From positions 20,509,081-20,573,080 of the forward strand of contig CP099848.1 in NCBI GenBank assembly GCA_030062745.1: 64,000 bases of DNA. The letters run 5' to 3'. The translations under genes and the position numbers were made by a program. Shown piece after piece: positions 18,153 to 24,200 of this stretch (the stretch's first letter is position 1; every line of letters begins with the position of its first letter). This DNA is from Capitulum mitella (taxonomy: Eukaryota; Arthropoda; Thecostraca; Pollicipedomorpha; Pollicipedidae). Below the pieces are notes generated by a model. That model was given only the letters and a program-made list of their open reading frames with translations, was not told the DNA's origin and did not search any database.

Positions 18153-18248
18153 TTACTGCTCGGCCTTGCGCTCCCGGGACGGCGAGCGGCTACTGTTGAG
18201 CGCCAGCAGCCGCATCTGTCGGATCACCGCCGTCGCATGGTACGCTTG
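18153..18248 (-). CDS. CaMKI: CaMKI exon 9b, distal calmodulin-binding exon and stop
   Basis: Acceptor CCTGTGCCGGCAG. It encodes [20 protein letters not shown] and a short basic tail ending AEQ, stop TAA at 18155-18153. [12 protein letters not shown] matches the calmodulin-binding segment of vertebrate CaMKI (QAFNATAVVRHM). Met336 lies 13 residues after Trp323, the known anchor spacing. Confidence 0.93.
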   Translation of the reverse strand, partial: QAYHATAVIRQMRLLALNSSRSPSRERKAEQ

Positions 18249-21200
18249 CTGCCGGCACAGGAGGGGCGCGTCAGGCGGCCGCGCTCGCAGTCGACGCGCC
18301 GCGCGAGCGCCAGCAAACGCCGGTCAGTGGGGAGAAGGACTTGCTCGGGAAATATGGCTTGAAGGTCGTTCAACGGAGACAGATGCAAATTAGACAGAGA
18401 CCATGCGATTCAGTGAGATCGAACAAAAGGGAAGTATCGCAAAGCAGGGTGGGGCGACACTGTTCGAGCGAATAGAACCTGAACAACCTGAAAACAAATA
18501 GAACGTGGTTAGTAGGTGGTGGCCGTAAACAACAAACAAAAACTCTGCTCCTTTCACATCGGAAATTCTTTGAACACTGGTTGCCTTAAGCAAGTTTTGA
18601 TGAGAATTCCCCACTTATGATAACCCCTGAACGAGGAAACAAAGGAATATAAAGTTTTCTCACATTTGGCCAGAATCATTCAACTCTCTCTCTCTCTTTC
18701 TCGAAGAAAAGAAAAACGAAAACAACGCAGCGCCTCCATCAGACAGCCAACCAAACATTTCAACAGTGCAACTACGGCCAAGCTCAAAACAGCATTCCGC
18801 CCAGGCAAAATGACACCAACTGTAAACACCACATCGCCCATCGCTCCAATTCGATCTACGCACACGACACACTCGCATGAGCAAGATAACGGTGGCGACT
18901 GTCAGTCGGCATATCCCCGACACAAGGGCAAGATTGCGGACGCGACCGCGGGCGCTCACGGCACGCGTCAATTGCGTGAATTGCGTAACGGTGCTCCGCA
19001 CAGTGACGCAATCCAATCAACCTGATCAAAGAGCAGATGCGCCCAGCCTGATCCAATGTGGGGCAGAGTGAGCTGCGCTGGCCACCCCCGCCGGCCAATG
19101 AGGAGCCCGGCGTCCTCGCTTCCCCACAGTCGTTCTTCCGCAGGGGAAGGGGACCTCGACGGCGGCGTCTGGACGGGGAGGGGAGGTGACCCTGACCGGC
19201 CCGCAGGGGGCGAGGTCAAGGTCAGCGGTCCGCGTCCTGGTGGGCGCCGCAGCTGCGGGGCCCGCATCGTTCCCCCAGTTCCGCAGCTGTGGTGAGGTTT
19301 TCCGAGGAGTGACTGCCTCATGAGTCTATCGGGCTGACGACTGAGGACCGCGATACCGTCAGGTGGCAGCCTCCTTGCAGCCACGTCCGGATCAGGATCC
19401 GGTGGGGACAGGACTAGACAGACCGACACAGGGCATGGGCAGTAAGAGGCACCGGAAGAGGCGGAGGAACGATTCAAACTGGCAGGGAGACACCGGACAG
19501 GGGCAGCGGAGGCAGGAGCAGCGGTATAGACAGACTGCAGACTGCAGACTGACCGGGACGACGACCCGTGCAAAACAGGACTTCAGACTAACCCCACAAT
19601 AAGAGCGTCTCCCATCTGCGAGCCGCCCGCACCCTCCTCCTCGCGCCGCCGTCGCCGCCCCGGACCGGCGGCCCGATAACGAGATCAGGGCGGCGGCGGC
19701 GCTCCACAGACGGGGCTCCAGCGCCGCGGCCGCGGCCGGCGCGCTCCCAGGGGCGGCGCCGCGGAGCCGCCGCGCCGGCCGCGGCCGCGCCGCCAACTGC
19801 GGCCGGCTCGCGGGCTCACGCATCGACTGTTCGATCCGCGCAAATATAGCCGCCGTGCATCCCGGCGCGGCGCGGCGATCGAACGCGGCGACGCGCCGGA
19901 CCGGCGGCGGCGGCGGCCCTCTGTCTGCCTATTGAGCTGGCCGAGGAGCCGGGCGCGACAGGACCGAACCGGCCAGGCCGCGGCCGCGGGTCCTGCCGGC
20001 CGCGGCTGGACTCCGCCGCGCGTCGCGACAACAGAGCGGTCCGTCGTGGCCCCTCTTGGCCGCAGTGGCGTTCGTTTTCGCAGCCCTCGCAGCAGCCGTC
20101 AGCGGCGGCGGCGGTGGCGGCCGCCGCTCCTCGCCCGCCGTTTCCAGGCAGCGGGCCGTCCGCGCCACGTAAACCGTCGACCTGAGGTTTCACGAGCCCG
20201 TGAGGCGAGCGGCCGGCGCCCGGCGGGCCCGCCGCCGGCGAAGGCGGAGACCAATACCCCCCGTCTGAGTGTCCCATCCCGGCCGGCAGCCGCCGCGGCC
20301 GCTCTGACGGCGGCCCGGTCCGCCCACGGACCGCCGCGCCGTAAACAGGGCCGCCCGGCCCGATCGAAATGGGCCGGACGCACGCGTCGGCCGGGCCGGC
20401 CTCGTCAGGCGGACAGAGACGAGGGCCAGACCGGCCAGACAACGCTCAGTGAGGCGCACAGCCGCGTCACAAGTCGCACACGACGGGCGCCGGCGCCGGA
20501 AGCGGATACCTGTGGGGCACGGCGAGTGATACGGGAGTGGCCCGTGAAACTGGTCCAACATAGCGTTTGGCCTGCGGAACGGACCACTCGCGCCAGTTCA
20601 GTGAGCTACCCACTAAGTGCGCGACACTTATTAAAGCCAACACACAAGCACGCAACTAACACTGGCCGGCTTCTCTAAACACAACAATCAGTGGACACCT
20701 ACTGAACATTCGGTGCAGCTGTACAAAAAGACGTTGGTTCTACACGACTAAGCCAATATAGACGCACTAGGTGGTGGTACTATGCGCGCTCAGTGGTGCT
20801 GCGTTCCAACGGAGCTCTAAGTGGACGTCGAAGGGAACAGGCACATCAGGCGGGAGATCTAGACAAAACTGCTGCTGGACGTGGAAACACTGCAGGGGTA
20901 GAGAGACCGCGAAAATTGTAACACTGGAAACAGGAAAGCCCGGTCAACTAGCAGATTAGGCGGCAGTCTGGAGATGAAGACATCAAACAAGGCGACCACG
21001 GATCTACACACAGCAGGTCGCAGATCCAGAAACGGCGGCCGGCGCATCTAGAGCCCGCCGTCTCCACGAATCTACACAGGGAAGCCGGTGGCTCTACACG
21101 CCGCTGCCGGTGGCCGTGGCCATCGGCGGGCTACGACAGTGCAGGCGGCCGGTCCGGGTAGCTCTGGACACGCTGTGGGTCCCGTGCTGAGCCGGTGGCG

Positions 21201-24200
21201 GTGCGGTGCGGTGCGGTGCGGTGCGGTGCGGGCGGGGCGGGGCGGCGCGCGGCCCTCAGGGCGCCGCCACAGACCTGGTGGCCGGCTGGCAGGCTCGGCG
21301 GCCGACCCGGCCGCCGGCGACGCCTCGTCCACGGAAGCGGCGCGGCCGGCCGCACCGGAGCCCTCCACCTCCATACTGGTGCTGCTTAGCCGCATCCGCT
21401 GCATCTTGTGCACCATGACTATGGCATGCATCAGTTGCTGCCGCCGGGCACGCAGTGTGAGCCAGAGAGAGGAGCGCGGTGGGCGGTCGCACGAGCCACG
21501 CTCCTCGCGCCATCCAGCGGCATACGCACGCACGCCTGCAGAGCGGCGCGAACGCATGCACGCGCGCGCGCTGTCCTCGGCGCTGGGGCGAGCGGGCGAC
21601 GCTACGCTGCGGACGGGACCGAGTCACAGAAGCCAAACACACCTCACCGGCGGCGGAACGTCGCAGCGTCCGGAACCAGCCGCACCTCAGAGCGAGAGAG
21701 AAGAAAACGTGCCGAAACCACCGTCGAGCAACGCTAGCCAAGACCGGAAGTGAGGAGAAGAAAAGAGACGACCGCCGATCGCGACACGCGCGCCGCGACC
21801 GGCGCCGCCGCCGCCGGCCACTCACCCGCCACCGGGACTTGGCGAAGTTCTTCTTGAGCTGCTCGGAGACGGAGCTGTGGATGTCCTTGTCGCGTGCGGT
21901 GTTGCCGCTGATCCTGGGGGCGGAGACAGGCGGCGTGAGCTCCACGCCCGGCCCGGCGGCCGCCGCCGTCCGTCGGCCGTTACATCGATCGCGTTTGATG
22001 GTGGCCGCCCGACGGGTTCCGGGGGGAGTCTCCACACCCGCGCCATCACAAGCCAATGCCCATCATCAGCGCCACAGCCGGCCGAACACCGCAAGCCTGA
22101 CAGATTCGCGTCAACGGTGCTGTGTCAACCGACGCGCCTAAGCGCGCACGCGTACAAGTCCACGCCTTCTGGGGCAGCGCAGACGAGGCGGCAGGGCGGC
22201 CGGCACGGAGTCTGCCCAGTGGAGCAGAGAACAGCGGCTGAGCTTGGCTGCCAGGATGGTCGGGTCAGAGGGGACAGCGGGACGGTGAGGCAGCTGGCAC
22301 TGTTGGGACAGTCGGAATAGCCAGTACTGCGGGACGGACGCACAGTCGGGCGTCCCTGGCGGCCGACTGACATCGCCGCCGCGCCGCCGACCGCCGCGGC
22401 GTTACGGCAGCCCCGAGGACCGCGTGTGGCCGTCGTTAGAACAGGCTGCGCGGCCGTGGCACCGTCCCGCCGGGCTGTCCGCCCCGCCGCCGGCGCCGCG
22501 GCCGGGAATAATCTCACTGACTTCCAGCCGGAACAGTTGCAACACTGGCCGCAATCTGTTCAGGCTCGCTGCGGCAGCACCAACAAAGGCTGCAACACAG
22601 CGGGCGCCAGCGGCGCCGCCGACCCGGTGAACTCCACTGCTGACACCGAACGGCTCCGGCGCATTGTTCGCCGCGCCCGCGCCACAATGGCCGCCGACCT
22701 GCCGGCGCGGCAGCTGGCCGGAGCGCCGGCAGGCAGGCAGCCCCGCCGTTCGGATTAAACAAACACGGCGTCAGCACCGGCATACTCCCAGCACCCCTGG
22801 CGGGCGGCCGACTAACAGAGCCGCAGGTGTGCCTCGGGTCACGGTGGGGTGCAGGCCGGCAGCGCCAGGGCGATGCCCCGGCTTCCGAACACGCGGCCTG
22901 CATGCATCTGAAGCGAGTCGCCTCCGTGCGGCGAATGTATCTTTCATAAGGCGACAGCATGGAGTGGGAAGGCGTCTGCTGCCTCATGAATGCTGCTGAT
23001 TAAACAATGCATAGTAAATTTCCAGAACGAAATACTGAATTTATGAGGGCATTATCGTGCACGCGACACGGACGCGACGATCTATTAGAGTGTCGGCCCC
23101 TAATCGGCTTACAATTCCAGCGTTCAAAGGTCGCATCGCTTCCCAAGCAAATACACTTCATTGAAAAGTCGTGTCCTCCGGGGCCTGACAAGTCCTGGGT
23201 GACACATAGCACGGCCATTGTGCCTTCAAGTCTGACCTCATTCTTTGGGCACGTTGTTTCACGGAAGCCTCACAAACGGCAGCGGGGCTTTTAAGGAGCA
23301 ACAGGTGACGTCGCCAGAATCGCCAACAGCAACAGTCGGCCACGACGGCGCGCCCCGAAGGCGTCAAGCCATTATCGGAGCTTAGTCCCCAGCCATTCGC
23401 GGGTAGTTAACCTCCGCCTCGTGACTACGGGGAAAGTCCAAACCCATTCATGTGATGCCTCAACTTTAAAGAGAAACGTCCCGAAAAGACGACCGTCCAT
23501 TGCTGGCAAAAGTGCCCTTTTAACTGGCGCGACTTCCTTCGTCTTCCAAAAAATCTTAGCCCTTCCCCGGGGGAAGATCCTCCGCAGGAAAACAGACCAG
23601 CAAGCGGAGAAAACCATCCAAGCCACCCACTGTGTTTAGGGCAATACTAGCCGCAGGGACATGAGCGGGATTCCTTCGTACCTCCATGACGCAATTTAAA
23701 AAATCCGTGAGGCGTTTTGTGGGGCGTATAACAAGCCGAACCTATTATAGTTTTCTTCAAATTCAAAAGCAGATGGAACTTGGAGTCTTTTTGAGTCTGC
23801 TTTCGTAGCAACATCACGCACGAACACATCACCCCCAGAACAGAGCCCGAGATGTACGAAAAAATCGTGCACGCTTACGTCTTGTACACAAAAATGTTAA
23901 CTGCGGAGCAGTTATCTTGTCGTGAAAGCAGCGCGATTCAAAGCTAAGTCGTCGCAAAGAGTTTCGCCTAAAAACGTGTTACTGCCGGCCACGGCATCCA
24001 GTGTCGTGCGCTAACATGCGAATATTCTGCTCGCCCATCCGCTGCGAACAGGTCGGCTCGAGACGCCTGGCGACGTCCGTTTAGCAATTTGAAACCGTGC
24101 CCGCTTCCGTCGCGCTCGTTATACACGATTGCCCGGCGGAGAGCACAGAACTGGATGGAAGCTGCTCCGACAAGAATGTGCCGTCGGTTGGCGGGCGAAT

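What the first reader, a model, noticed from the sequence alone, without database searches (positions are those of the whole stretch)
18153..21437. Two alternative calmodulin-binding exons at the end of CaMKI
Seen: exon 8 ends in phase 0 at ..SRWR. Two downstream segments each follow an AG acceptor, each begin with CAA (Gln), and each encode a gap-free alignable helix: proximal [20 protein letters not shown] and distal [20 protein letters not shown]. Both keep His328, Ala329, Met336, Leu341 and Ser343, and so the Trp323-Met336 1-14 anchor spacing known for CaMKI-calmodulin complexes. Hydrophobic and basic residues between the anchors differ (the proximal version is Met-rich and more basic at 338-340). 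Inference: splicing could produce two kinases with the same catalytic domain but different calmodulin affinity, autoinhibition and C-terminal tail. I do not know of a described mutually exclusive exon pair at this position in CaMKI.
Basis: partly seen in the sequence, partly recalled or inferred. Interest (0 to 1): 0.82.

Follow-up and report, generated by a model that had tools for sequence, protein, structure and literature searches.

The report
Second calmodulin-binding exon in CaMKI
A calcium-signalling kinase gene, probably from a barnacle, seems to carry a spare version of the exon for its calmodulin-binding tail, which could give the animal two differently tuned forms of one kinase; no RNA evidence was available.

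Summary
The minus strand carries a CaMKI gene, modelled here as nine coding exons; exon 8 (ending 21826) plus the usual last exon (18248-18153) match solved CaMKI structures. At 21437 in the last intron an AG is followed, in phase, by a second CaMKI-like calmodulin-binding helix. Its similarity to the standard helix is beyond chance: 0 of 25,362 real and 0 of 239,925 simulated AG sites score as high. The genome search found no other significant copy. Coding signal is moderate and splice sites are weak.

None of 13 poly(A) hexamers lies between exon 8 and 16557. The two best donors in the proximal segment (21356, 21275) both leave phase 1. So the proximal exon is best read as a frame-shifting cassette: skipped, the kinase ends in the distal helix; included, it ends in the proximal helix and the distal exon is read out of frame to a stop at 18190. 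A like layout is published for the kinase DCLK1 and, less closely, the calcium pump PMCA.

Splicing, conservation and calmodulin affinity are untested. A new variant of a known kind.

The parts
54812..54954 (-). CaMKI coding exon 1, from the presumed start ATG ([13 protein letters not shown]..)
   Evidence: open frame to ..LG, donor AC|GTGAGT
46992..47126 (-). CaMKI exon 2
   Evidence: [11 protein letters not shown]; splice sites
46666..46740 (-). CaMKI exon 3
   Evidence: [24 protein letters not shown]
34397..34535 (-). CaMKI exon 4
   Evidence: [16 protein letters not shown]
27513..27636 (-). CaMKI exon 5
   Evidence: [15 protein letters not shown]
24846..24986 (-). CaMKI exon 6
   Evidence: [16 protein letters not shown]
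24341..24467 (-). CaMKI exon 7
   Evidence: [17 protein letters not shown]
21826..21913 (-). CaMKI exon 8, ends in phase 0 at ..NFAKSRWR; holds the first calmodulin anchor Trp323
   Evidence: phmmer to 1a06, 6t28 and others together with exon 9; donor 5.9 bits
21275..21437 (-). Proximal (candidate cassette) exon, 163 nt, phase 0 in, phase 1 out: second calmodulin-binding helix plus tail; a shorter form would end at 21356 (82 nt, also phase 1)
   Evidence: anchored similarity; donors 1.6 bits each, ranks 7 and 8 of 248 GT; codon signal 21419-21294
21378..21437 (-). The 20-codon helix [20 protein letters not shown] inside the proximal exon; Met336 keeps the 1-14 spacing to Trp323, 1-5-8-14 residues W, M, I, M
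21072..21437 (-). Full open frame from the proximal acceptor to its first stop (121 aa), relevant only if the exon is terminal
18153..18248 (-). Distal, standard last coding exon: [31 protein letters not shown] and stop
   Evidence: exon 8 + distal to 1a06 E 6.2e-16, to the 1mxe calmodulin-complex peptide E 2.3e-7
18190..18248 (-). Same exon as it would be read after proximal inclusion: ..[19 protein letters not shown] then a stop ending at 18190
   Evidence: inferred
16552..16557 (-). First AATAAA downstream of exon 8 on the gene's strand
   Evidence: use not shown

Best explanation
The proximal segment is a real alternative exon of CaMKI, an old diverged duplicate of the calmodulin-binding exon, used as a frame-shifting cassette. 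When it is skipped, exon 8 joins the distal exon and the 355-residue standard kinase is made. When it is included (163 nt by the donor at 21275, or 82 nt by 21356), the kinase gets the proximal Met-rich helix; the exon ends in phase 1, so the distal exon is read in another frame and stops after 19 codons (397 or 370 residues). One 3' end and one poly(A) signal serve both. The reading frame would make the two helices exclusive at protein level. Shown: both segments, their phases, the beyond-chance similarity, the donor ranking, the absent poly(A) hexamers. Inferred: that the exon is spliced in, which donor is used, and that the helix swap alters calmodulin affinity and autoinhibition.
For: Anchored similarity to the distal helix, 0 of 25,362 real and 0 of 239,925 simulated AG sites; best of 161 AGs in the right intron and strand. 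Calmodulin anchors Trp323 and Met336 kept; 1-5-8-14 positions W, M, I, M against W, F, T, M in rat (that Trp and Met are the anchors is recalled). Exon 8 + proximal aligns gap-free through the helix to 1a06 (48.8 bits; 60.4 for exon 8 + distal) and matches the 1mxe peptide (E 0.0019; 2.3e-7 for distal); exon 8 supplies part of these scores and was not run alone. Frame 0 of the helix scores +1.1 in codon usage against -29.0 and -19.4 for the other two frames, and the signal falls past 21275 (per codon 0.00 before, -0.34 after). On the minus strand from 21825 to 12000 the two best coding segments are the distal and the proximal exon. Donors 21275 and 21356 rank 7 and 8 of 248 GTs, both phase 1. 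None of 13 poly(A) hexamers until 16557; a barnacle MLCK cDNA is reported to end after AATAAA (PMC3278446, passages). A like layout is published for DCLK1 exon 16/17 (PMC10602587, passages).
Against: No RNA evidence. The acceptor is weak: -2.7 on a matrix of recalled frequencies, below the six other upstream acceptors scored (-1.6 to 5.4; exon 3 was not scored) and the distal one (1.9), rank 57 of 163. The two donors score 1.6 bits, below the seven chosen donors of the gene that were scored (3.4 to 5.9). With a separate noncoding training set and both strands of 34380-16000, the proximal coding segment ranks only 13th of 94 segments, and four intronic segments, two of them on the minus strand, score higher. 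The shifted frame of the distal exon does not look coding (-0.86 per codon over the whole exon). No DNA-level similarity. The hydrophobic moment of the helix is not above shuffles, nor is that of the distal or rat helix. The absence of poly(A) hexamers is weak evidence in such G+C-rich sequence. Conservation untested.
Confidence: 0.5

Rival explanations
1. Alternative last exons: the proximal exon runs on to its own stop at 21072 (121 codons) and its own poly(A) site, giving a 445-residue kinase; splicing competes with cleavage.
For: The frame stays open for 121 codons; no strong donor in the exon.
Against: None of 13 poly(A) hexamers occurs between 21826 and 16557, though the stretch is G+C-rich so few are expected; codon signal is lost after 21275; the remaining frame runs through a CGGTG tandem array at 21193-21249.
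Confidence: 0.2
2. A decayed or never-used duplicate: the segment descends from the calmodulin-binding exon but is no longer spliced, or is a rare cryptic exon.
For: Weak acceptor and donors; moderate coding signal; low DNA identity; no test of conservation.
Against: Frame open, anchors kept, codon signal in the right frame and ending near a donor.
Confidence: 0.24
3. In-frame inclusion by the donor at 21369 (69 nt, phase 0): a kinase with two calmodulin-binding helices in series.
For: The frame is kept and the product would be 378 residues.
Against: The donor scores only -0.3 bits and codon signal continues past it.
Confidence: 0.04
4. Chance resemblance.
For: Only 6 of 20 residues identical; without the AG rule, chance windows reach similar scores to the rat helix (29 and 28 against 29).
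Against: Position, strand, phase and start residue all fit; 0 of 25,362 and 0 of 239,925 controls.
Confidence: 0.02

Closest known systems
DCLK1 C-terminal exons 16/17 (human), PMC10602587, passages read
   Same: Kinase of the same CAMK group; the C-terminal autoregulatory tail is switched by one extra exon after a phase-0 boundary; inclusion shifts the frame of the last exon to an early stop; the authors suggest a possible exon duplication.
   Different: There the exon joins by a phase-2 intron and acts on a tail that docks in the nucleotide pocket; here it leaves phase 1 (predicted), sits in CaMKI, and swaps the calmodulin-binding helix itself. The DCLK1 isoforms are known; this one is not shown in RNA.
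PMCA calcium pumps, splice site C (PMC8835232, passages read)
   Different: An ion pump, not a kinase; the insertion lies inside the domain, whereas here a homologous helix is supplied from just after the first anchor.
CaMKI of vertebrates (PDB 1a06, 6t28, 4fg9, 1mxe)
   Same: Kinase domain, autoinhibitory/calmodulin segment, 1-14 anchor spacing.
   Different: The solved CaMKI chains listed carry a helix of the distal kind; PNCK (CaMKI beta) is said to have splice isoforms (PMC6469190, passages), but the passages I saw describe no homologous alternative helix.

Membership tests
CaMKI | CAMK-type kinase domain closest to CaMKI | tested here: met
   1a06 E 3.5e-151 over 32-342; the next group, CaMKIV, 5.1e-86; Pfam Pkinase 2.2e-81
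CaMKI | C-terminal autoregulatory and calmodulin-binding segment, distal exon | tested here: met
   gap-free alignment to 1a06 and match to the 1mxe peptide
CaMKI | Same segment, proximal exon: 1-14 anchor spacing and gap-free alignment | tested here: met
CaMKI | Calmodulin binding and calmodulin-dependent activity of the proximal form | not testable with these tools
   needs peptides and enzyme
Tandem duplicated (homologous) exon pair | Neighbouring exons with related sequence and the same 5' phase | tested here: met
   protein-level score 34 against 0 of 25,362 controls; both follow phase 0; no similarity at DNA level
Mutually exclusive exons (strict sense) | Two internal exons of compatible length, exactly one used | tested here: not met
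   the distal exon carries the stop and is the last coding exon, and the predicted proximal lengths (163, 82) are not multiples of 3
Frame-shifting cassette exon as in DCLK1 or PMCA site C | Exon length not a multiple of 3, shifting the last exon to an early stop | tested here: inconclusive
   both best donors give phase 1 and a stop at 18190, but they are weak
Frame-shifting cassette exon as in DCLK1 or PMCA site C | Both splice forms present in RNA | not testable with these tools

The most novel reading that the evidence does not exclude
One CaMKI gene encodes two kinases with the same catalytic domain but different, homologous calmodulin-binding helices, chosen by a cassette exon whose length makes the choice exclusive through the reading frame. 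It would be a second CAMK-group kinase, beside DCLK1, to have gained a regulatory-tail switch by exon duplication plus frame shift, pointing to a repeated route for tuning calcium sensitivity.
Probability: 0.4. Interest if true: 0.6.

Novelty: new variant of a known kind. Interest (0 to 1): 0.45.

Why it matters
The genome searches showed no close second CaMKI copy (in one search, 114 of 295 candidates were scored), so a splice switch would be a way to obtain CaMKI forms with different calcium sensitivity without a second gene. Mammals use four CaMKI genes (PMC6469190, passages). It is directly testable: RT-PCR or an existing RNA-seq set decides whether the exon is used, and two peptides decide whether affinity differs.

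Tried and rejected
Ohnolog test. The genome has 16 contigs and 477 Mb, like published assemblies of the barnacle Capitulum mitella (463 and 512 Mb, 16 chromosomes; PMC8416341 and PMC11331182, passages), and a barnacle genome duplication is reported there, so I looked for a second CaMKI copy holding the exon pair. Exon 8 + distal gave only the window's own two matches (2 candidates). The proximal exon gave 12 scored candidates and 7 matches at E up to 10: itself, and six with E from 0.45 to 9.5. The full kinase gave 114 matches (114 scored of 295 candidates). One multi-exon gene, C5:30653000-30654331 (46 to 54% identity), reads like a DCLK by recalled motifs and shows no helix match. Other CaMK-like matches, for instance at C15:6532480-6541989, were not examined. 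The barnacle identity is a guess, not tested by sequence.

Rfam on 16000-26000 at gathering score: 0 matches. Pfam on three C-terminal pieces, E up to 1: 0 families. Viral contigs: 2 stretches matched a pattern, none a relative. Exon 8 + proximal also gave six weak DAPK1 hits (E 0.45 to 1.2), not taken as meaningful. Structure prediction was not used: the spliced protein is not one stretch of window DNA. Hydrophobic moment was uninformative. Two slips of mine were mended: the first codon run read four of eight training genes on the wrong strand (redone), and exon 3 was first taken one base short (redone).

Literature. Ten searches. In the listings shown I saw no paper on alternative calmodulin-binding exons in arthropod CaMKI; several lists were capped (20 of 4,612, 10 of 434), the term CaMKI also matches CaMKII, and only open-access papers are held. 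A barnacle paper on calmodulin, MLCK and CaMKII names no CaMKI (PMC3278446, find by word). No database of annotated arthropod proteins was at hand, so an existing annotation of such an isoform cannot be excluded.
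Full report
What is there. The minus strand of the window holds a CaMKI gene. Nine coding exons, as modelled from frame and splice sites, give a 355-residue protein whose best solved relatives are CaMKI structures (1a06, E 3.5e-151; 2jc6 and 6t28, CaMKI delta; CaMKIV 5.1e-86). 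The start codon is presumed. Exon 8 ends in phase 0 after SRWR at 21826; the standard last exon, 18248-18153, encodes the rest of the calmodulin-binding helix and a short tail. With exon 8 it matches 1a06 at 6.2e-16 and the rat calmodulin-complex peptide 1mxe at 2.3e-7.

The proximal segment. At 21437, 3.2 kb before the standard exon, an AG is followed in phase by [20 protein letters not shown]. It scores 34 (BLOSUM62) to the distal helix and 29 to the rat helix. In the intron the next best of 161 AG sites scores 5 and 3; in the window the next best of 6,881, the distal exon left out, scores 27 and 19. Without the AG requirement two other places in the window reach 29 and 28 against the rat helix, so the anchoring matters. 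Controls: 0 of 25,362 AG sites in 28 other loci of the same genome (both strands) and 0 of 239,925 AG sites in 1,500 third-order Markov copies of the intron reach the observed values. The relation is not visible in DNA: 35 of 60 bases agree in register, and a free DNA alignment is no better than shuffles, 171 of 300. The flanks before the two acceptors are slightly more alike than shuffles (16 of 300 as good), which I do not count as evidence.

Coding evidence. Codon usage was trained on the long open frames of eight kinase genes of the genome (third-position G+C 0.88 to 0.98; 4,448 codons). In the helix the right frame scores +1.1 against -29.0 and -19.4 for the other two; in the tail up to 21276 it scores 0.1 against -10.6 and -13.6; after that the right frame drops to -0.34 per codon. 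Among minus-strand segments from 21825 to 12000 the best two are the distal exon and 21419-21294 in the proximal exon. The noncoding set used there included parts of this intron but not the proximal region, which favours it slightly. A stricter run with a separate noncoding set, over 34380-16000 on both strands, still finds the segment (9.6) but ranks it 13th of 94. Above it are five known exons, three shadows on the opposite strand of exons, and four intronic stretches, two of them on the minus strand. The coding signal is therefore moderate support, not proof.

Where the exon ends. None of 13 poly(A) hexamers occurs on the gene's strand between 21826 and 16557, where an AATAAA stands; few are expected in such G+C-rich sequence, but this does not favour an own poly(A) site for the proximal exon. 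In its open frame the two best of 18 GT donors are 21275 (CAG|GTCTGT) and 21356 (CCG|GTGCGG), 1.6 bits each, 7th and 8th of 248 GTs from exon 8 to the distal exon; both leave phase 1. Joined to the distal exon they read ..[19 protein letters not shown] and stop at 18190. Skipping gives the standard kinase. So one cassette exon would switch between two homologous helices, with the frame keeping them exclusive. Weak points: the acceptor (-2.7) is below all seven others scored, the donors are below the seven chosen donors scored (3.4 to 5.9), the matrices are recalled rather than trained on this species, and the shifted frame of the distal exon shows no coding signal.

What the helix could do. 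Trp323 and Met336 keep the 1-14 spacing. The 1-5-8-14 residues are W, M, I, M in the proximal, W, Y, T, M in the distal and W, F, T, M in the rat helix; net charge is +4, +3 and +4 over 20 residues. The proximal helix should therefore still bind calmodulin. Position 327, Phe in rat and Tyr in the distal form, becomes Met; from recalled work on rat CaMKI this residue takes part in autoinhibition, so weaker autoinhibition or altered calmodulin affinity is plausible but untested.

Context. The proximal exon has no other significant match in the 477 Mb genome, and the CaMKI tail has none. A search with the whole kinase gave 114 matches; the one multi-exon gene that I looked at, on C5, reads as a DCLK; others were not examined. 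The neighbour at 4656-5789, plus strand, matches the tRNA m1G methyltransferase family.

Comparison. In DCLK1, a kinase of the same group, an extra exon 16 after a phase-0 boundary joins exon 17 by a phase-2 intron, shifts it to an early stop, and changes the autoinhibitory tail; its authors suggest a possible exon duplication (PMC10602587, passages). In PMCA pumps a 154-nt exon inside the calmodulin-binding domain shifts the frame, and the isoforms differ in calmodulin affinity (PMC8835232, passages). The present case would combine the two: a homologous helix and a frame shift, in CaMKI. It is not a strict mutually exclusive pair, because the distal exon is the last coding exon and the predicted proximal length is not a multiple of three.

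Verdict. RNA, conservation and affinity remain open, so confidence in the full mechanism is 0.5; I put use of the exon in any form at roughly 0.74.

Noticed in passing
window 4656-5789 +: Open frame of 377 codons matching Pfam tRNA (guanine-1)-methyltransferase (E 5.5e-14), convergent to CaMKI; by recall it resembles TRMT10-type proteins.
   Followed up: partly
window 17349-17945 -: Open frame of 198 codons starting MYKVLWRFVFKS.. about 200 bases after the CaMKI stop; probably 3' untranslated region.
   Followed up: no
window 21193-21249: Tandem array of CGGTG (11.4 copies) just past the proximal exon's candidate donor.
   Followed up: no
L044 (around G000:C5:30653000-30654331): Compact multi-exon kinase that reads as the animal's DCLK; its C-terminal exons could be checked for a DCLK1-type frame-shifting exon.
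   Followed up: partly
window 28352-28777 - and 30330-30648 +: Intronic segments with coding-like codon usage as high as the proximal exon; could be undescribed exons or noise.
   Followed up: no
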